Positions 26,542 to 35,036 of a stretch of 35,036 nt of DNA are shown here, piece after piece. The translations under genes were made by a program, and so were the position numbers. The number at the start of each line of letters is the position of its first letter. The stretch's first letter is position 1. A model generated the notes under the pieces. That model was given only the letters and a program-made list of their open reading frames with translations, ran no database searches and was not told the origin of the DNA. Source of the stretch: an uncultured Armatimonadota bacterium (GTDB lineage Bacteria > Armatimonadota > Armatimonadia > Armatimonadales > Armatimonadaceae); assembly GCA_903881535.1 (NCBI GenBank), contig CAIRTT010000249.1:1-35036 (forward strand), in the 5' to 3' direction.

Positions 26542-27261
26542 ATGGCTGACGACACAGGTAAGAAGCCCCCCAAGGTTAAAGGAGCAAGAATCGCTACCCA
26601 CAACGCTGGGAAGCCCTCCAACCCCCATGAGCTGTCTCCCGTAGAGATAGCAGCCATAACCGAGTTCATGCAGAACGGGGGAAACATGAGCGCGGCAATG
26701 AGGAAAGCGCACCCAAATGCCAAGAACTGGCAAGAAAACACACTGAACGTCAATGCATCGCAGACCTTTGGGCAGACTAAGGTGCGAATTAGAATCGCTC
26801 AACTGAGGGCCGAACAGCAGCAAAGAACGGCGATCACCGCCGATCGTGTTCTGCAAGAGGCCTACAAACTGGCATTCTCGGACGTCCGTCAACTGTTCCA
26901 TGAGGACGGAGAATTGAAGTCTCCCGCCGAGTGGCCGGACGGTGCTGCAGGCGCCATCGCCTCGTTTGAGGTAGTCACCCAGAATCAGGGAGTAGGCCAG
27001 CCGCCCCGGTACATCCACAAGGTGAAGCTCTGGGACAAGAACCCGGCGCTTGAGAAACTGTTCCGGCACATGGGCCTGTTTGAGAAAGACAACAGCCAGA
27101 AGGCCAGCATCTTGGCCCAAGACCTGTCCACAATGCCCCTCCCACTATTGCAGATGATTCAGGACAAGATACGAGCCTATGACGATGGAGCAGCAAGCCG
27201 AGGATCTCTTCCGGATGTTTCTGGCAACGGGCCAGCATCGGGCGATCGCATTAACCATTGA
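26542..27261 (+). CDS. terS: Terminase small subunit
   Basis: 239 residues from the ATG at 26542. A helical DNA-binding N-terminal part (SPVEIAAITEFMQNGGNMSAAMRKAHPNA) resembles the helix-turn-helix of Terminase_2-type small subunits. It is followed by VRIRIAQLRAEQQQRTAITADRVLQEAYKLAFSDVRQLF and a C-terminal region that ends in the large-subunit-interacting tail. It recognises the packaging site and loads TerL. It overlaps terL by 83 bases. Confidence 0.85.
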   Translation: MADDTGKKPPKVKGARIATHNAGKPSNPHELSPVEIAAITEFMQNGGNMSAAMRKAHPNAKNWQENTLNVNASQTFGQTKVRIRIAQLRAEQQQRTAITADRVLQEAYKLAFSDVRQLFHEDGELKSPAEWPDGAAGAIASFEVVTQNQGVGQPPRYIHKVKLWDKNPALEKLFRHMGLFEKDNSQKASILAQDLSTMPLPLLQMIQDKIRAYDDGAASRGSLPDVSGNGPASGDRINH

Positions 27262-29857
27262 TAGCGTCGAAGAGAAGAAGCGCTGCGAGACCAGCCTAGC
27301 CGAGTTTGTGAAGTGTGCTTGGCACGTGGTAGAACCTCCCGGCACAAAGCTGATCTGGAACTGGCACTTGGACGTCATCTGCGCATACATGGAAGCGGTG
27401 TACGCCGGGGGCATCAAACGCCTGATTGTGAATATCCCGCCGGGCACGATGAAGTCGCTGGTGATCATGGTCTTCTACCCCAGCTGGGTCTGGACTCAGC
27501 GTCAGGGCGAGAGATTCCTGTGCGGCACGAACGACGGGACTCTGGCGACACGCGACGCGGTCAGGATGCGGCAGCTGATCACCTCCGAGTGGTACAAGTC
27601 GCACTGGGGTGCCAAGGTGCAGCTCTCGGTCGACCAGCAGGACAAAGGCCTGTTTGCCAACACCTACCGCGGCCACAGGGAGTCCCAGTCGATACTGGGC
27701 AAGGTAACTGGTAAGAGAGGCAGTTGCATTGCCGGCCATGTGTCTATTGAGACTGAGCAAGGCCCGATTGCTATGGAATTGCTGTGCTCTATGCCGTCAC
27801 CGCCCAGAGTATGGACGTTTAATATTGAGACTGGGAGCGCAGAGCTTCAGGCTGTTGTAGCTACGCGCAAATTAACGGCTGTAAAGACGATAGACGTTTG
27901 CACGCTTGCCGGTAACTTGCTAACATGCACGCCAGATCATTTGATCTTTGCGAGCGGAAACTATGCAAAAGCAGAAAGCGTCGCCGGGTGCAGCTTGTCC
28001 ATCATGCAAAGGCCCAACCGGACGGCGCAACGGGCTGCCCATCCGATGCAGCTCATGCGCAAAAGTTCGGTTGCAATGCATAACATGCGGAATTGGTTTT
28101 CAGCGGGATGGCGCGGAAATCGACAAGCATGCCCGCAGGGGATTGAAAGACGGGCCATTTTGCAGCAAGGCCTGCAACAAGCCGATAAGAAATCCCCAGC
28201 CGATCGTAAGGCAGTGCGCACACTGTGGCAGCAACTACCGTCCTCGCTCATTAGATCCATCAAGGAAGTTCTGCAGCAGGGTTTGCTATTGTGCGGCCCC
28301 ATCGCCAATAAAAGTCTTGCAGCCAAAGCCTTGTGCTCAGTGTGGATTGATGATGACAATCACAAGCATACGACGCAAGTATTGCGGAATGTCCTGCAAA
28401 AACAAAGCCCACTCGGTCAGGATGCAAGGTTCTGGCAATTCCCACTTTACAAAAGCAACCAGCCGAGATGGACTGTTCAGGCGCATGGCTTTGATAGTAT
28501 TGGAAAGGGATTGGTATTGTTGCGCAGCTTGTGGAACGCGAAAAGACTTCCGGCGGCTGTCGGTTCACCACATCGACCACGACCCGGATCACAACGAGCC
28601 GTACAATCTAATCAGCCTGTGCAGCTCTTGTCACAACACACACCACAGGTCTATCAATCCGCCTGCTGGATTGAAGACGGAGAAGCTGAAGGGCATGGCT
28701 CATGCCCGGTCGATGTCTATGACATACAAGTTGCAGCAAACAGCAACTTCTTTGCTGGCGGAATATTAGTCCACAATTGTTTGCTGTGGGACGATCCCCA
28801 CGACGCCAACTCGGTCGAGTCTGACGTGCAGCGGCAATCGGTCATCGACGCCTACGACCAAGGCTGGTCAAGCCGACGCAATGATCTGGAAAATTCGCCG
28901 ATCGTCATCGTTATGCAGCGAGTTCACTACGCCGACATCACCGGTCATTTGCTGAAGAAAGGCAACTGGACACGGCTGGCGATCCCCATGCGGTTTGACC
29001 CAGACACGACGTACGACCCGGTCGCTGACCTGAACCGGCCCGACCTGAAGGATCCCCGGACTGAGGCAGGGCAGCTGCTGTTCCCACAGAAGTTCCCCGA
29101 TGTAGCGGTCAAAGAGCTTGAGGCCAACCTAGGCTCCTACGGCACCGCTGGGCAGCTCCAGCAAAACCCCTCGCCGAAGGGTGGCGGTATCCTGCGGTCG
29201 AGCCTGATCAACCTGTGGCCGAACACCAAGCCCCTGCCGATCATGCAGTACATCGTCCAGTCATACGACACGGCCTTTACGGAAGACACCATGAACGACC
29301 CCACTGCCTGCACTGTCTGGGGCGTGTTCTGGCATGAAGGCAAGACCAACATCATGCTGATCGACTGCTGGCAGGAGCACATGGAGTACCCCGCGCTGCG
29401 TCAGAGGGTGATCAAGGAGTGGTCGAGCAAGTACGCCGGCAACCCCAAAGACATCAGCAACCCGGCCCGATCCCCGGACATCGTCCTGATCGAGAAGAAA
29501 GGGTCAGGCCAGTCGCTGCTGCAAGACCTGTCAGCGACCAAGATCCGGATCGCCGGCTACAACCCCGGTCTGGCCGGCAAGGTGGCACGTGCCCACCTGA
29601 TCACCCCGATCATGGACAGCGGCGTCATCTGGATCATTGAGTCCAAGGCTGGCGACTCGTGGCCGACTTGGGCGACGTGGCTGGAAAAGCAGATCGACCG
29701 ATTCCCGAACGACGAGCACGACGATGGGGTAGACACCATGACCCAAGCCCTGCGCTACCTGAAAGACTCCGGCTTCGTGTCCCTGAGCCAGAGCGAACGC
29801 ATCCACGAGAACCGCCCGCTAATCACAAAGGAGAAGGGGAACCCCTATGCCCAGTAA
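27179..29857 (+). CDS. terL: Terminase large subunit, interrupted by an intein
   Basis: The 892-residue precursor comprises a 541-residue terminase in two parts, residues 1-182 and 534-892. The ATPase part has a Walker A-like NIPPGTMKSLVI (about 89-100; non-canonical Met for Gly/Lys spacing) and a Walker B CLLWDDPHD (534-542) right after the intein. The nuclease part has RNase-H-like acidic residues: SYDTAFTED, VLIEKKGSGQS and DEHDDGVDTM. It packages DNA through the portal. Splicing must remove residues 183-533 to restore the Walker B strand, so activity depends on the intein. Confidence 0.92.
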   Translation: MTMEQQAEDLFRMFLATGQHRAIALTIDSVEEKKRCETSLAEFVKCAWHVVEPPGTKLIWNWHLDVICAYMEAVYAGGIKRLIVNIPPGTMKSLVIMVFYPSWVWTQRQGERFLCGTNDGTLATRDAVRMRQLITSEWYKSHWGAKVQLSVDQQDKGLFANTYRGHRESQSILGKVTGKRGSCIAGHVSIETEQGPIAMELLCSMPSPPRVWTFNIETGSAELQAVVATRKLTAVKTIDVCTLAGNLLTCTPDHLIFASGNYAKAESVAGCSLSIMQRPNRTAQRAAHPMQLMRKSSVAMHNMRNWFSAGWRGNRQACPQGIERRAILQQGLQQADKKSPADRKAVRTLWQQLPSSLIRSIKEVLQQGLLLCGPIANKSLAAKALCSVWIDDDNHKHTTQVLRNVLQKQSPLGQDARFWQFPLYKSNQPRWTVQAHGFDSIGKGLVLLRSLWNAKRLPAAVGSPHRPRPGSQRAVQSNQPVQLLSQHTPQVYQSACWIEDGEAEGHGSCPVDVYDIQVAANSNFFAGGILVHNCLLWDDPHDANSVESDVQRQSVIDAYDQGWSSRRNDLENSPIVIVMQRVHYADITGHLLKKGNWTRLAIPMRFDPDTTYDPVADLNRPDLKDPRTEAGQLLFPQKFPDVAVKELEANLGSYGTAGQLQQNPSPKGGGILRSSLINLWPNTKPLPIMQYIVQSYDTAFTEDTMNDPTACTVWGVFWHEGKTNIMLIDCWQEHMEYPALRQRVIKEWSSKYAGNPKDISNPARSPDIVLIEKKGSGQSLLQDLSATKIRIAGYNPGLAGKVARAHLITPIMDSGVIWIIESKAGDSWPTWATWLEKQIDRFPNDEHDDGVDTMTQALRYLKDSGFVSLSQSERIHENRPLITKEKGNPYAQ
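27725..28777 (+). other. Intein in TerL lacking an in-frame endonuclease (351 residues)
   Basis: Block A is CIAGHVSIETEQGPIAMELL, with Cys1 after KRGS. Block B is GNLLTCTPDHLIFASG, with the TxxH motif. Block F is VDVYDIQVAANSNFFAGG and block G is ILVHN followed by Cys+1. These are complete hallmarks of a class 1 splicing domain. The roughly 230 residues between them (about 95-325) have no LAGLIDADG or HNH motif. They are rich in Q, R, L and S, as expected for an out-of-frame reading. The HNH gene lies in the +1 frame of the same DNA. Confidence 0.92.
27963..28769 (+). CDS. HNH homing endonuclease encoded out of frame inside the intein
   Basis: 268 residues from the ATG at 27963; an upstream TTG at 27948 is possible, and a TGA at 27942 closes the frame. 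Four to five CxxC-type zinc knuckles (CPSC, CITC...CSKAC, CAHC...CSRVC, CAQC...CGMSC) precede the catalytic unit VLERDWYCCAACG...LSVHHIDHDPDHNEPYNLIS and CSSCHNTHH. His, Asn and His of the HNH fold are all present. It runs in frame +1 relative to terL and stops 8 bases before the intein ends. The ribosome site (GAGCGGA) is weak. It is the presumed mobility enzyme of the intein. Confidence 0.88.
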   Translation: MQKQKASPGAACPSCKGPTGRRNGLPIRCSSCAKVRLQCITCGIGFQRDGAEIDKHARRGLKDGPFCSKACNKPIRNPQPIVRQCAHCGSNYRPRSLDPSRKFCSRVCYCAAPSPIKVLQPKPCAQCGLMMTITSIRRKYCGMSCKNKAHSVRMQGSGNSHFTKATSRDGLFRRMALIVLERDWYCCAACGTRKDFRRLSVHHIDHDPDHNEPYNLISLCSSCHNTHHRSINPPAGLKTEKLKGMAHARSMSMTYKLQQTATSLLAEY

Positions 29858-30337: not shown

Positions 30338-33300
30338 ATGCCTAAGAAAACTGCTCCCCAGAACACTGGCCTGTTCAACAAGATGCTTGGCTCGATAGCC
30401 AAAGGCGTCGGCACGGCCACCAGTTCGCACCCGGTTGACTCCCTGCTTGGGTTTGTATCCCCCGACCTGTTAGCTATGAAGCTGGACGCCGAGAAGGCCG
30501 GCAACGCCTACCCAGTTGCAGACCGCTGGAACGGCCCCGGCGACGCCATGCGCCACCTGATGTTCTCTTCCAAGCTGGCCGACCGCTACGGGCAGATCCC
30601 GTCGCAGCTGGAGAGCCTTGCCCACGAGTACCTGCTGAATTTTGGCGAGTCTTCCGCAGAGCGCGAGATGGATCTATACAACGACACGCTGGGACGATCC
30701 ATTGCCGGGCAGACGTCAGACCCAGCCGAGATGCAGCGCCTTGCCCAGAAGTACGTGGATGAGGGCACAGCCAAGACCATCAAGGGCAAAGAGGGCGCAC
30801 CGAGCAACTACGGCGGCGGTGGCGCCGTAATCAAGGCTGCTGAGAGGGCTGCGGCAAGGGCGGTAGAGAAGAGCGCCGCTAAACCTGTGTTACATGCCGC
30901 ACCAAACGTAGTAAACATGAACAACATCCCCGACGAAAAAGAAGGGTATCTGAGGCTGTATCATGGGGGTTCTGAAGAGGGCTTTACAAGTGTCCCGGAT
31001 TCTTCAACAACTGCCGGCTTTTCTTTTGACGGATTATTTGCACACCCTGAAAAGCGAAGTTCATGGGGCGCACATGGCAATGGTTCTAACTATTTTGCCG
31101 ATATAAAAGAACCTGAAATTCTGACCCAAAACGCACTGGATTACCACATTCCTTACGAAAACACGGTGGCTGCACTTAAGAAAGCAATGCCTTGGCTTAA
31201 TGATAATGATGTCGATCTTGCTCACTCTGCTGTAATTGAAGACAAAAATGTTCATGACATGGACGCAAATGATGTTTCTAGAGTTTTCCGCGCAGATGAT
31301 CCCGGCCAAGCATCTTGGGAAGCGCAGCGCCTTCGAGGAAATGTAGCGCGAAATTTGGGATATAAAGCTGTGGAAATGGGCGACGAACATGGCACCAGCT
31401 ATCTCATGATGCCCGGTGTGCCTCTCACGCAAGTAATAGAAACAGACTCATCTGACCTAGGCCATGCCCACGGCGGCCTGATTGGCTTGGCTCAGAAGTA
31501 CGGTGGCGGCGGCCTGATCAGAAAGTACGACGAGGGTGGTGATGTCGCTGTACCAGATACCCAACCTAGTATCATGGGCGCACTGAAAGACCCGCAGTTC
31601 CGCCAAGACGTAGCTAACAACTTCAGGGATGCCGCGTATCGGGGTGCGGTGGCAGGTACGTTGGGTGCTCCGGTAGACATTGCTAACATGTTGGCTAACT
31701 TGGGCACAGCCGGTTACGGCTACCTTGGCAACAAGGCGGGTATGCTCCGTGGTTCCGAGATGCCAGCCACGTACAACGAACCAGTAGGCGGGTCAGAGTG
31801 GATAGGCAACAAGCTGCGGGACTATGGTGTCATCGGTGGCAACCGTAACTTAACCGCAGAAGTGATAGCAGGGTTAGGACTCCCGCTGGTACCAGTTGCT
31901 GCCGAGGCTCGCATACCGCAGATGGATAGAGCGTTGGAACAGATGGCCGCCAACTACGCTGCCAAAGACGATTTAAATGCCGGTGCTTTTGGTCAGCGTG
32001 GGGCCATAAAGCTGAGAGGGGGCAATTGGCTTAAGGGTAGTATAGAAGAGTCGTTGAATGGGTTGAAGGCAAGAACAATGAACGAATTTGAGCTTAAAAA
32101 TTTAGCAGAAAGTCAGGGCGTTGATGTAGCTGAAAGAATGCGCATCAACCAACAACCCGCAGAAGCACTCAACAACTGGGTAGACAAAACCCTTACCAAG
32201 TACGTCAAGAACGACATGGGTACGCCGGAAGACCCGTTGCGGATAATGGCGGATAAGCATGCCGTGGACAAACCTGCCAAGCTAGCTGAGGTGCAAGGGC
32301 GTATTGATGCCTTTGCTGCTAAGATGGAACAGACGGCTAGGGAGCGTGGAGTGCCTGTTGGGGATCTAACCTCTATGCGCCAGCAGATGATCGGTTTGGA
32401 GAAAGAGAAAGCATTGGTGGAAGCTAGACAAGGACTTCATTTTGAACCCCAACAACGCGGTCCTCAAATAATAGAAGATCTGCGTCACAATCGAGAGATG
32501 GAGGGTTTTCCGGGCGCAGGCTTTGGTCAATCGGAACTCGCTCGGAGATGGGAAACCGCTACCGACAAGGTTATACACCCAGAGCAAGCGCGAGACATAC
32601 TACGAGGACCGAATTACGTAAACGCAGCCATTGCCAAGGCACACGTTGACCATTCTTTGGCAAATGATCCGTGGTTGTTAAAAGTGCCTCCGGAAACAAA
32701 AGTGTATGACTTACCAGCTACCATGCGCCCTCCTGAGCACCTCGGCTTTGACCACCTCATCGACGAACTGCGCAACGCTACCAACCCTGAATCTGGCTTG
32801 CCCAAAGAGTTGCTGATTAACCCTAAAGATTTGCCCAAGATAACGATGGAGCAGGCCGTTGACCGCGTAGCTGACATAAATGCGTGGCGTGCTGCCCAGA
32901 AAGTTGAAGCCAATAAAGCAATGGCCAACAACCCTGCTACGTTCACGCACAAAGAGTATCCTGAGCAGGGTATGAAATGGGTGCAGTTGAAACGTCCTGA
33001 AGCTGTTCTTGAAGAAGGGCACGTTCCGGGCGCAGTATCAGGTTATCCAGATTTACATGGCATCATTGACCAACGCACCGGACAAAGCGTGTCACCGGGT
33101 CGGTACAATCCAGAAGAAGCTATGGACTTGTATAAGAGGGAAGAGCGCACCAAGTCTCTAGCCGACGCACTCAAGCACGAAGGCGACACAATGCGCCACT
33201 CTGTTGGAGGGTATGGAGTAAAAGGGGGGTATGGGGCTGGGGGCATAGACGCTATACTTGACGGCAGGGCTAGTATCTTTTCGCTTCGTGATGCCGAAGG

Positions 33301-35036
33301 GCGTTCCTACGCAACGATTGAAGTTCGTAAAGGAAAGCAATTAAATGACCCAACACAAGGGTTAAGTCAATCTATTTCAAACACTATTGACCCAAAACTA
33401 TTGCAAGAATATCACGAGGAATTCGCGCGGTCCGGTGAACATAGTATGTATTTTGCTAAGAACTTCTGGCCATGGCTCAAACAAACCCATCCTGAAACAT
33501 ATGAAGCGATGACTAAAGTGGGTAAGCCCATAATTCAACAAATAAAAGGCGTTGGGAATGCCGCTGTTAAGAAAGAATATTGGCCTTTGGTGCAGGACTT
33601 TGTCAAAAGCGGGTCGTGGTCAGGTGTGAATGACTTGCATAATACAGGGTTGTCAAATGTTGGCGGCAGATATTTCACCGAGCCTGAGCTTGTTGAGGCG
33701 GCTAAAAAGTATGGGCGCATGGGAGTCCAAGACACCACGTGGGAAGTTGCAAAACAACGGCACATCGATGCAGGCATGACAGAAGAGCGGGCTCTGGAAA
33801 ACTGGGTTGAAGGGTTTAGAGAGGGCCGAGGCAGGCTTGATATTCCACCCGAAGGCTTCGCTGCAGGCGGCAGCGTCAGAGCATACGATCCATCCCGGGT
33901 AGACCAGATTATGAACAGTATCAACACCCCGAGCAATTACGCAGCCGGCGGCCTTGCTGAGTTAGCCAACAAGTACGAAGGCGGCCCGTGCTACCAGTTT
34001 AAACATGACGACCATGACGAGCACTTCAACTTTGGTGGTGGTGGTGGGGTTGCCAAGGCTATGCGCGAGTGGCTCAAAGACCACCCAGAGAAGAGCTTGC
34101 AAAAGCTGAAGATGACGGCAGGAGGAGAAGACCCCGCGCAGTTGCTCAAGGCTATGGAAGAGGGCACTGACCCAAATCCTTCGGCACACATGCTTGAGCA
34201 GATGCCAAGCATCAAGGCAAAAGGTGCAATCAACAACTGGATCGACAGCACCCTGAAGAATTACGTCAAGCGCGACTACGGTCAAGAATGGGATCCGTTG
34301 TCCCAGCTGACTCCGGAACAGCGCCATGTTCCTTTGATGGATGAGCAGTACCGCAAAGAACAAATCAATGCCGTCTGGCCACCCAGAAACACAATAAACA
34401 AACGAAACCCGGCGGGGATCACAACGGTTACCCGCGCCCAACTTGAGAACCCACAGCTGAGAGAACAATATCAGAAACCCGACTATTTGGAATCTATCTA
34501 CAAAGAAAACCCGTGGATGCTCAACAAGGGAATGGACGAGCCAATCTCGTCATTTGATTCTTACGGTTTAGGGCTGGAGCATCTGACCGACGAGCTGCAC
34601 AATGCCACCCGCCCGGACTCAGACCTGCCTGATCAGTTGCGCATTAGGCCTGAATCCTTGAGCCGGATGTCGATGTCGCAAGCATCCCAGCTGGTGGGCA
34701 AGATCAATGAATACAGGGCTGCGTTAAAGGCTGCTAACGCGCAAAAGGCACTACTAACCCCTTACAAAGAATACAAATCAGGACACAAATGGGTTGAGTT
34801 GCCGGATGCATCTGATCCACAAGGATTAAAGGCGGTAATGGACACTGGTTGCGAAGGCGGCTGGTGTACTATGGGTGAGGATGAAGCAAGAGGTTATAGC
34901 CGAGCGGCGGACGGAAGGAAGCTCTATGCCTTGATAGATCCAGAAGGAAAGCCGCACGTTCAAGCTTATACTGTAAAAAACAACTTAGATCCTAACAGCC
35001 TGAATTCTGGCTACCACTTAGATCCTAACAGCACCA
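30338..35036 (+). CDS. Giant polyvalent-type protein (partial, runs off the right edge)
   Basis: The frame from the ATG at 30338 (GGGGTGAG upstream) stays open to the window end, at least 1566 residues; the track missed it because no stop is present. The order read is as follows. First a DUF6973-like module (NGPGDAMRHLMF...AHEY...EMDLYNDTLGR, about 64-125). Then an ADP-ribosyltransferase-like module (RLYHGGSEEGF...GYKAVEMGDEHGTSYLMM, about 205-370). Then GGLIRKYDEGG and a segment similar to the virion protein at 12562. It continues with two PcfJ-like modules (MRHSVGGY...IFSLRD...ATIEV and CEGGWC...YALIDPEGKPHVQ). This is like polyvalent proteins ejected with the DNA. Confidence 0.8.
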   Translation, partial: MPKKTAPQNTGLFNKMLGSIAKGVGTATSSHPVDSLLGFVSPDLLAMKLDAEKAGNAYPVADRWNGPGDAMRHLMFSSKLADRYGQIPSQLESLAHEYLLNFGESSAEREMDLYNDTLGRSIAGQTSDPAEMQRLAQKYVDEGTAKTIKGKEGAPSNYGGGGAVIKAAERAAARAVEKSAAKPVLHAAPNVVNMNNIPDEKEGYLRLYHGGSEEGFTSVPDSSTTAGFSFDGLFAHPEKRSSWGAHGNGSNYFADIKEPEILTQNALDYHIPYENTVAALKKAMPWLNDNDVDLAHSAVIEDKNVHDMDANDVSRVFRADDPGQASWEAQRLRGNVARNLGYKAVEMGDEHGTSYLMMPGVPLTQVIETDSSDLGHAHGGLIGLAQKYGGGGLIRKYDEGGDVAVPDTQPSIMGALKDPQFRQDVANNFRDAAYRGAVAGTLGAPVDIANMLANLGTAGYGYLGNKAGMLRGSEMPATYNEPVGGSEWIGNKLRDYGVIGGNRNLTAEVIAGLGLPLVPVAAEARIPQMDRALEQMAANYAAKDDLNAGAFGQRGAIKLRGGNWLKGSIEESLNGLKARTMNEFELKNLAESQGVDVAERMRINQQPAEALNNWVDKTLTKYVKNDMGTPEDPLRIMADKHAVDKPAKLAEVQGRIDAFAAKMEQTARERGVPVGDLTSMRQQMIGLEKEKALVEARQGLHFEPQQRGPQIIEDLRHNREMEGFPGAGFGQSELARRWETATDKVIHPEQARDILRGPNYVNAAIAKAHVDHSLANDPWLLKVPPETKVYDLPATMRPPEHLGFDHLIDELRNATNPESGLPKELLINPKDLPKITMEQAVDRVADINAWRAAQKVEANKAMANNPATFTHKEYPEQGMKWVQLKRPEAVLEEGHVPGAVSGYPDLHGIIDQRTGQSVSPGRYNPEEAMDLYKREERTKSLADALKHEGDTMRHSVGGYGVKGGYGAGGIDAILDGRASIFSLRDAEGRSYATIEVRKGKQLNDPTQGLSQSISNTIDPKLLQEYHEEFARSGEHSMYFAKNFWPWLKQTHPETYEAMTKVGKPIIQQIKGVGNAAVKKEYWPLVQDFVKSGSWSGVNDLHNTGLSNVGGRYFTEPELVEAAKKYGRMGVQDTTWEVAKQRHIDAGMTEERALENWVEGFREGRGRLDIPPEGFAAGGSVRAYDPSRVDQIMNSINTPSNYAAGGLAELANKYEGGPCYQFKHDDHDEHFNFGGGGGVAKAMREWLKDHPEKSLQKLKMTAGGEDPAQLLKAMEEGTDPNPSAHMLEQMPSIKAKGAINNWIDSTLKNYVKRDYGQEWDPLSQLTPEQRHVPLMDEQYRKEQINAVWPPRNTINKRNPAGITTVTRAQLENPQLREQYQKPDYLESIYKENPWMLNKGMDEPISSFDSYGLGLEHLTDELHNATRPDSDLPDQLRIRPESLSRMSMSQASQLVGKINEYRAALKAANAQKALLTPYKEYKSGHKWVELPDASDPQGLKAVMDTGCEGGWCTMGEDEARGYSRAADGRKLYALIDPEGKPHVQAYTVKNNLDPNSLNSGYHLDPNST

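What the first reader, a model, noticed from the sequence alone, without database searches (positions are those of the whole stretch)
28690..28777. Dual-coded C-terminal splicing motifs: the HNH C-terminus overlaps blocks F and G
The HNH reading frame continues through the DNA for DVYDIQVAANSNFFAGGILVHN and stops only 8 bases before the intein end. These bases must satisfy catalytic Asn, penultimate His and block F in one frame and the endonuclease C-terminal tail (LQQTATSLLAEY) in the other. This constrains both proteins and suggests that the endonuclease gene invaded or extended over the splice domain, rather than sitting in a neutral linker.
Basis: seen in the sequence. Interest (0 to 1): 0.75.

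Follow-up and report, generated by a model that had tools for sequence, protein, structure and literature searches.

The report
Endonuclease gene hidden inside terminase intein
In this phage's DNA-packaging gene one stretch of DNA encodes two proteins at once, a self-splicing intein in one reading frame and a probable DNA-cutting homing enzyme in the next, and even the intein's final splicing signal doubles as the enzyme's C-terminal helix, an arrangement conserved in about thirty divergent phage lineages.

Summary
The terminase large subunit gene (27179-29857) holds a class 1 intein (27725-28777). An HNH endonuclease ORF lies inside it in the +1 frame and stops at 28769, 8 bases before the intein ends. 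This is not local: 31 divergent clusters (<60% HNH identity) from phages, prophages and phage-like plasmids share the intein, site and +1 frame. The terminase frame has 0 stops where about 360 are expected. In 24 clusters the HNH tail runs over blocks F and G. There, codon choice preserves HNH residues far beyond what the intein sequence forces (z about 10-17), while exteins, block A and relatives whose HNH stops earlier show no such signal. AlphaFold makes the window's tail a confident helix (pLDDT 92-96). The tail is not universal: 7 of 31 clusters stop at the start of block F. A 95% identical phage has the empty site, so the element is mobile. Most likely the HNH is a separately translated homing enzyme whose frame overprinted the C-terminal splice blocks. 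Hidden out-of-frame HNH genes are published for splice-less methylase insertions (PMC11855218). One unread preprint may cover inteins. No cleavage, splicing or translation was tested.

The parts
27179..29857 (+). Terminase large subunit (TerL) precursor, 892 aa, interrupted by the intein (exteins 27179-27724 and 28778-29857)
   Evidence: PHROG 38 E 3e-69 and TIGR01630 above cut-off; open frame
27725..28777 (+). Class 1 intein, 351 aa in the TerL frame (C1, TPDH, HN, +1 Cys)
   Evidence: TIGR01443 above cut-off; PF14890 below its cut-off; family profile matches solved inteins, E 5e-24; AF2 HINT fold, residues 1-88 and 328-351 pLDDT mostly above 90, Foldseek to DnaX, DnaB and RecA mini-inteins
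27929..27940 (+). Intein block B TPDH
   Evidence: invariant T and H in the 29-sequence alignment
27963..28769 (+). HNH endonuclease, 268 aa, +1 frame, nested in the intein (ATG 27963; alternative TTG 27948; frame closed upstream of 27945); tandem zinc-binding Cys pairs and a C-terminal HNH domain
   Evidence: PF01844 above cut-off; PHROG 1271 E 3e-20; AF2 mean pLDDT 86.9; start inferred
28521..28649 (+). HNH nuclease domain (VHHIDHDPDHNEPYNLISLCSSCHNTHH)
   Evidence: Pfam hit residues 187-229; invariant H, N, C and H columns
28715..28777 (+). Intein blocks F and G, read at the same time in the +1 frame as the HNH C-terminal tail
   Evidence: codon tests; codon-position rates
28725..28763 (+). 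Predicted C-terminal helix of the HNH (residues 255-267), encoded by block F and G codons
   Evidence: AF2, pLDDT 92-96 in the last blocks
28767..28769 (+). HNH stop codon TAG, inside the codons for intein I-L-V
   Evidence: most relatives read on to a TGA 7 bases past the intein end
27724..28778 (+). Insertion junctions; the empty site in L067 reads GKRGS|TLLWDDPHD

Best explanation
A mobile element with two overlapping coding layers. In the TerL frame it is a class 1 intein that should splice itself out of the terminase; its roughly 230-residue middle is only the wrong-frame reading of a nuclease gene, kept free of stops. In the +1 frame it is an HNH endonuclease with tandem zinc-binding modules, probably translated as a separate protein from an internal start, which presumably cuts intein-free terL so that repair copies the element in. 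In most lineages the nuclease frame reads on through splicing blocks F and G, and that reading has become a selected C-terminal helix, so codons there serve catalytic Asn and His and block F in one frame and the nuclease tail in the other. Shown by sequence and statistics: nesting, conservation, dual constraint, intact splice residues, presence/absence polymorphism. Inferred: splicing, separate translation, cleavage of the empty site, and that the tail arose by extension over an older splice domain.
For: 31 clusters with the same intein, TerL site and +1 HNH frame. TerL-frame stops 0 vs 360 expected. Resampling intein-synonymous codons in 24 tail-bearing clusters: positions 0-6 z=17.1, positions 7-20 z=10.2, against block A -4.2, N-extein -0.4, C-extein 1.8 and -1.2, tail-less loci 0.9; also with three other codon-usage nulls. 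Third bases follow the HNH residue: Phe TTT 24/24 vs 7.8 expected (Leu), Ile/Val/Leu ending A or T 24/24 (Tyr or Phe), Ala GCC 0 vs 8.6 (would be Pro in the helix), while Lys/Arg-neutral CAA/CAG varies 18/6. Streptomyces cluster: block F-G difference rates 0.05/0.03/0.05 by codon position vs extein third positions 0.3-0.4, and 0.42 at block F-G third positions in the S-EIVl cluster, whose HNH stops earlier. AF2: HNH ordered, linker disordered, HINT halves ordered. Shine-Dalgarno plus start at intein codons 40-60 in 16 of 31 loci vs 3.9 expected. Empty site in a phage about 95% identical over flanking kilobases, mismatches crowded within 10 bp of the junctions.
Against: No expression, splicing or cleavage data. 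The window's HNH has no good Shine-Dalgarno at 27948 or 27963. Seven of 31 clusters lack the tail. Loci are treated as independent in the resampling, and the tree is poorly resolved. The first 12 C-extein codons give a weak z of 1.8, and with nulls not fitted to exteins the C-extein control is positive (z 4-5), although block A stays null.
Confidence: 0.82

Rival explanations
1. The tail overlap is accidental read-through: the HNH ends functionally near its domain and the frame simply runs to the first stop, so the shared TATSL-like tail is only a shadow of conserved block F.
For: Stop positions vary widely (-95 to +91 nt relative to the intein end), and seven clusters end at the start of block F. 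The window stops one codon short of the SSTT seen in relatives.
Against: Holding the intein protein fixed, +1-frame residues are far more conserved than chance in every one of 24 tail-bearing clusters (p from 0.008 to <0.0001) but in none of five tail-less ones. The tail is predicted as a confident helix.
Confidence: 0.06
2. The extra conservation is at DNA or RNA level (for example a recombination or regulatory element at the 3' end of the intein), not in the HNH protein.
For: Third bases are nearly fixed at several positions in all tail-bearing loci.
Against: Allowed and forbidden bases track HNH amino acids (Tyr/Phe, Lys/Arg and Leu/Gln/Arg allowed, Pro and Ser avoided), and the signal is absent where the HNH stops before the region.
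Confidence: 0.07
3. The HNH is made as a frameshift fusion to the N-terminal half of the TerL-intein, not from its own start.
For: The relative frame is always +1, and in several loci the HNH frame is open far upstream. The window lacks a clear ribosome-binding site.
Against: Shine-Dalgarno plus start is enriched fourfold at intein codons 40-60. A constant frame is expected from common descent, because dual coding locks the frames. In the window the HNH frame is closed just upstream (stop 27942-27944).
Confidence: 0.13
4. Assembly or sequencing artefact, or a decayed in-frame endonuclease domain.
For: Annotation pipelines split the gene in Streptomyces plasmids.
Against: The same architecture occurs in isolate phages Clown and S-EIVl, in plasmids and in dozens of independent contigs, with both frames intact.
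Confidence: 0.01

Closest known systems
ShiLan domain and Pacc40 insertion: hidden out-of-frame HNH in phage DNA methylase genes (Arsenault, Gosselin and Gogarten 2025, PMC11855218)
   Same: An HNH gene nested out of frame in an insertion that is open in the host frame, stopping at the very end of the insertion, with disjunct distribution that suggests homing
   Different: The authors report no splicing motifs there. Here a complete intein is the other coding layer, and catalytic splice motifs themselves are dual-coded. Different host gene, and found far beyond actinophages
Canonical inteins with a homing endonuclease domain (for example VMA inteins, PMC8966425; an HNH intein was described by Dalgaard et al. 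1997, cited there)
   Same: HINT splicing fold, endonuclease between blocks B and F, insertion at a conserved functional motif, presence/absence polymorphism
   Different: There the endonuclease is an in-frame domain of the same polypeptide; here it is a separate ORF in another frame and overlaps blocks F and G
Split inteins with a free-standing endonuclease gene between the halves ('fractured genes', Dassa et al. 2009; recalled, paper not held)
   Same: Endonuclease encoded as a separate protein associated with an intein
   Different: Here the host gene is unbroken and the two coding sequences overlap
Gosselin, Arsenault and Gogarten 2025 preprint 'Actinobacteriophage inteins ... non-canonical architecture' (doi 10.1101/2025.01.02.630785; not held)
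   Same: May include terminase inteins such as that of Gordonia phage Clown
   Different: Contents could not be read, so priority for out-of-frame HNH in inteins is unknown

Membership tests
Class 1 intein | N-terminal Cys/Ser and block B TxxH | tested here: met
   C1 at 27725, TPDH at 27929; C1, T69 and H72 invariant in 29 loci
Class 1 intein | C-terminal His-Asn followed by +1 Cys/Ser/Thr | tested here: met
   VHN|C; N351 invariant, H350 nearly invariant
Class 1 intein | HINT fold | tested here: met
   AF2 and Foldseek to mini-inteins
Class 1 intein | Protein splicing | not testable with these tools
   no experiment
HNH endonuclease | HNH motif with zinc Cys pairs | tested here: met
   PF01844 above cut-off; PHROG 1271
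HNH endonuclease | DNA cleavage | not testable with these tools
   no experiment
Intein with in-frame homing endonuclease domain | Endonuclease in the same reading frame as the intein | tested here: not met
   HNH is in the +1 frame in all 31 clusters
Mobile (homing) intein | Presence/absence at an identical site in close relatives | tested here: met
   L067 empty site, flanks about 93-96% identical
Mobile (homing) intein | Endonuclease cuts the empty allele | not testable with these tools
   no experiment
Hidden out-of-frame HNH insertion (ShiLan kind) | HNH ORF out of frame inside an insertion that is open in the host frame | tested here: met
Hidden out-of-frame HNH insertion (ShiLan kind) | No intein splicing motifs in the host frame | tested here: not met
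   complete intein present

The most novel reading that the evidence does not exclude
A natural case of genetic entanglement. By encoding its nuclease out of frame through the whole intein, including the catalytic splice blocks, a selfish element ties the nuclease to an essential phage gene: most indels in the nuclease would also destroy terminase, which should slow the decay that normally follows homing. The HNH C-terminal helix would be a new protein segment created by overprinting an older intein.
Probability: 0.35. Interest if true: 0.85.

Novelty: new variant of a known kind. Interest (0 to 1): 0.72.

Why it matters
It shows an intein and a probable homing endonuclease sharing DNA in two frames instead of sharing a polypeptide, conserved across phages of very different GC content (34-72% in the terminase exteins), with catalytic splicing motifs that are themselves dual-coded. 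It gives a clean natural system for measuring how far two proteins can constrain each other, for asking whether overlap protects a selfish nuclease from decay, and for how overprinting creates new protein segments. It also explains why annotation pipelines split these terminase genes and overlook the nuclease.

Tried and rejected
Tail conservation as a simple shadow of block F: rejected by synonymous resampling with controls and four codon-usage nulls. DNA-level element: disfavoured by the pattern of allowed bases and by tail-less loci. Tree of the HNH to decide tail gain or loss: unresolved, 6 changes needed, long branches. HNH N-terminal overlap with block B: starts and Shine-Dalgarno are enriched, but cross-lineage residue conservation is weak. 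L011 and L012 turned out to be small matches next to another gene, not members. The single-sequence viral scan found nothing. Foldseek of the HNH gave only partial HNH-domain matches at weak E-values. Other genomes of the same family held only ordinary weak HNH matches. Literature: no held paper describes an out-of-frame endonuclease inside a functional intein; the most relevant preprint and the 2009 fractured-genes paper are not held.

Full report
Observation. The terminase large subunit gene (27179-29857) contains an in-frame intein at 27725-28777 (C1 ... VHN|C, 351 aa). A second ORF in the +1 frame (27948 TTG or 27963 ATG to TAG 28767-28769) encodes a zinc-binding HNH endonuclease and ends 8 bases before the intein does. 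Domain matches: TerL by PHROG 38 and TIGR01630; the intein C-terminus by TIGR01443 above its cut-off, while Pfam's intein model falls below its cut-off for this sequence; HNH by PF01844 above cut-off. The finding's description is correct to the base.

It is a family. tblastn of the HNH hit Gordonia phage Clown, Synechococcus phage S-EIVl and four Streptomyces plasmids, in each case inside a terminase ORF or a split version of one. A scan with the seven-sequence alignment gave about 50 loci with the same arrangement: the HNH always in the +1 frame, the TerL frame open right through, the third frame closed by stops. They fall into 31 clusters below 60% HNH identity, all with intact C1 and Asn|Cys at the same TerL site, before the (L/I)-I-(I/V)-D-D-P motif. 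A second scan added more.

Both layers are real. With HNH protein sequences held fixed and codons drawn from each locus's own TerL usage, the TerL frame should hold about 360 stops over the 31 clusters; it holds none. AlphaFold2 of the window HNH gives mean pLDDT 87. AlphaFold2 of the intein gives two ordered halves (1-88 and 328-351) that match mini-intein structures, and a disordered linker exactly where the nuclease is encoded. A profile of the inteins matches solved inteins at E 5e-24.

The finding itself: blocks F and G. With the intein protein held fixed and its codons resampled, the +1-frame tail is much more conserved than expected in 24 tail-bearing clusters: twelve codons before block F z=20, positions 0-6 z=17, positions 7-20 z=10. 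Controls: N-extein -0.4, block A -4.2, C-extein 1.8 and -1.2. Five clusters whose HNH stops at the start of block F give 0.9 over positions 7-20. The result holds with three other codon-usage nulls; there the C-extein control is no longer null because those nulls do not fit exteins, but block A stays null. Taken one at a time, all 24 tail-bearing clusters are significant (window p=0.006) and none of five tail-less ones is. The bases used fit protein-level selection: the second Phe of block F is TTT in 24 of 24 (HNH Leu), the codon before Leu of LVHN ends in A or T in 24 of 24 (HNH Tyr or Phe) although ATA and GTA are rare, Ala is never GCC (HNH Pro), while Gln CAA/CAG, neutral as Lys/Arg, varies. 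Within the Streptomyces cluster, difference rates in block F-G are 0.05/0.03/0.05 at codon positions 1/2/3, against third positions of 0.3-0.4 in exteins. In the S-EIVl cluster, whose HNH stops in block F, the block F-G third-position rate is 0.42. The overlapping residues are predicted as a helix (255-267, nt 28725-28763) with pLDDT 92-96.

Limits of the finding. Seven of 31 clusters end the HNH within the first codons of block F, after a conserved SMT-like motif, so the helix is not universal. The window stops one codon before the SSTT that most relatives carry to a TGA 7 bases past the intein end. Whether the tail was gained or lost cannot be read from the tree. Free-standing or more distant HNH relatives often end 10-35 residues after the HNH motif, which favours extension over the splice domain, but this is inference.

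Expression and mobility. A Shine-Dalgarno with a start codon lies at intein codons 40-60 in 16 of 31 loci against 3.9 expected, so internal initiation is likely in much of the family. The window's own HNH frame opens only at 27945 and shows no good Shine-Dalgarno. A close relative of this phage (L067; flanks 93-96% identical) has the empty site GKRGS|TLLWDDPHD, with Thr in place of the +1 Cys and mismatches crowded within 10 bp of the junctions, as expected after recent insertion with short co-conversion. L068, more distant, is empty too.

Known and new. Hidden out-of-frame HNH genes are published for methylase insertions in mycobacteriophages, where no splicing domain was found (PMC11855218). 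Standard accounts place the endonuclease of an intein in frame as a domain (PMC8966425). No held paper describes an out-of-frame endonuclease inside a functional intein, but a 2025 preprint on actinobacteriophage inteins with 'non-canonical architecture' could not be read and may overlap. I therefore call it a new variant of a known kind. L127 looks like an independent case in another terminase intein with the HNH in the other frame.

Verdict. Observation confirmed; dual constraint supported; 'extended over the splice domain' likely but not proven; function in homing inferred.

Noticed in passing
L127:2457-2969 (IMG/VR 3300031607_000040): An unrelated HNH gene nested in the +2 frame of an intein in a different terminase clade and site; host-frame stops 0 vs 7 expected. 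It looks like an independent origin of the same trick.
   Followed up: partly
L092:2998-3531, L100:1978-2505, L118:2968-3360: Small HNH genes hidden out of frame inside cytosine-methylase-like genes without an evident intein, like the published ShiLan domain but in other phages; host-frame stops absent where 5-11 are expected.
   Followed up: partly
L004-L007 (Streptomyces plasmids): The terminase gene is annotated as an HNH protein plus a hypothetical protein because of the frame overlap; the N-terminal terminase half is left unannotated.
   Followed up: yes
L054:3008-4861: A copy in which the HNH N-terminal half and C-terminal half lie in different frames (frameshifted or misassembled); a possible decaying member.
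   Followed up: no
L067:3543 and L068: Empty terminase sites with Thr and Gln at the +1 position; insertion in the window goes with a change to Cys.
   Followed up: yes
L004, L006, L007, L018, L020, L023 and others at intein end +5 to +7: The HNH stop is often a TGA formed by the extein codons for Leu-Ile just past the intein; a stop at this codon occurs in 18 of 29 loci vs 10.7 expected.
   Followed up: partly
window 30338-35035: A 1566-aa ORF running off the contig end downstream of the terminase; identity not checked.
   Followed up: no
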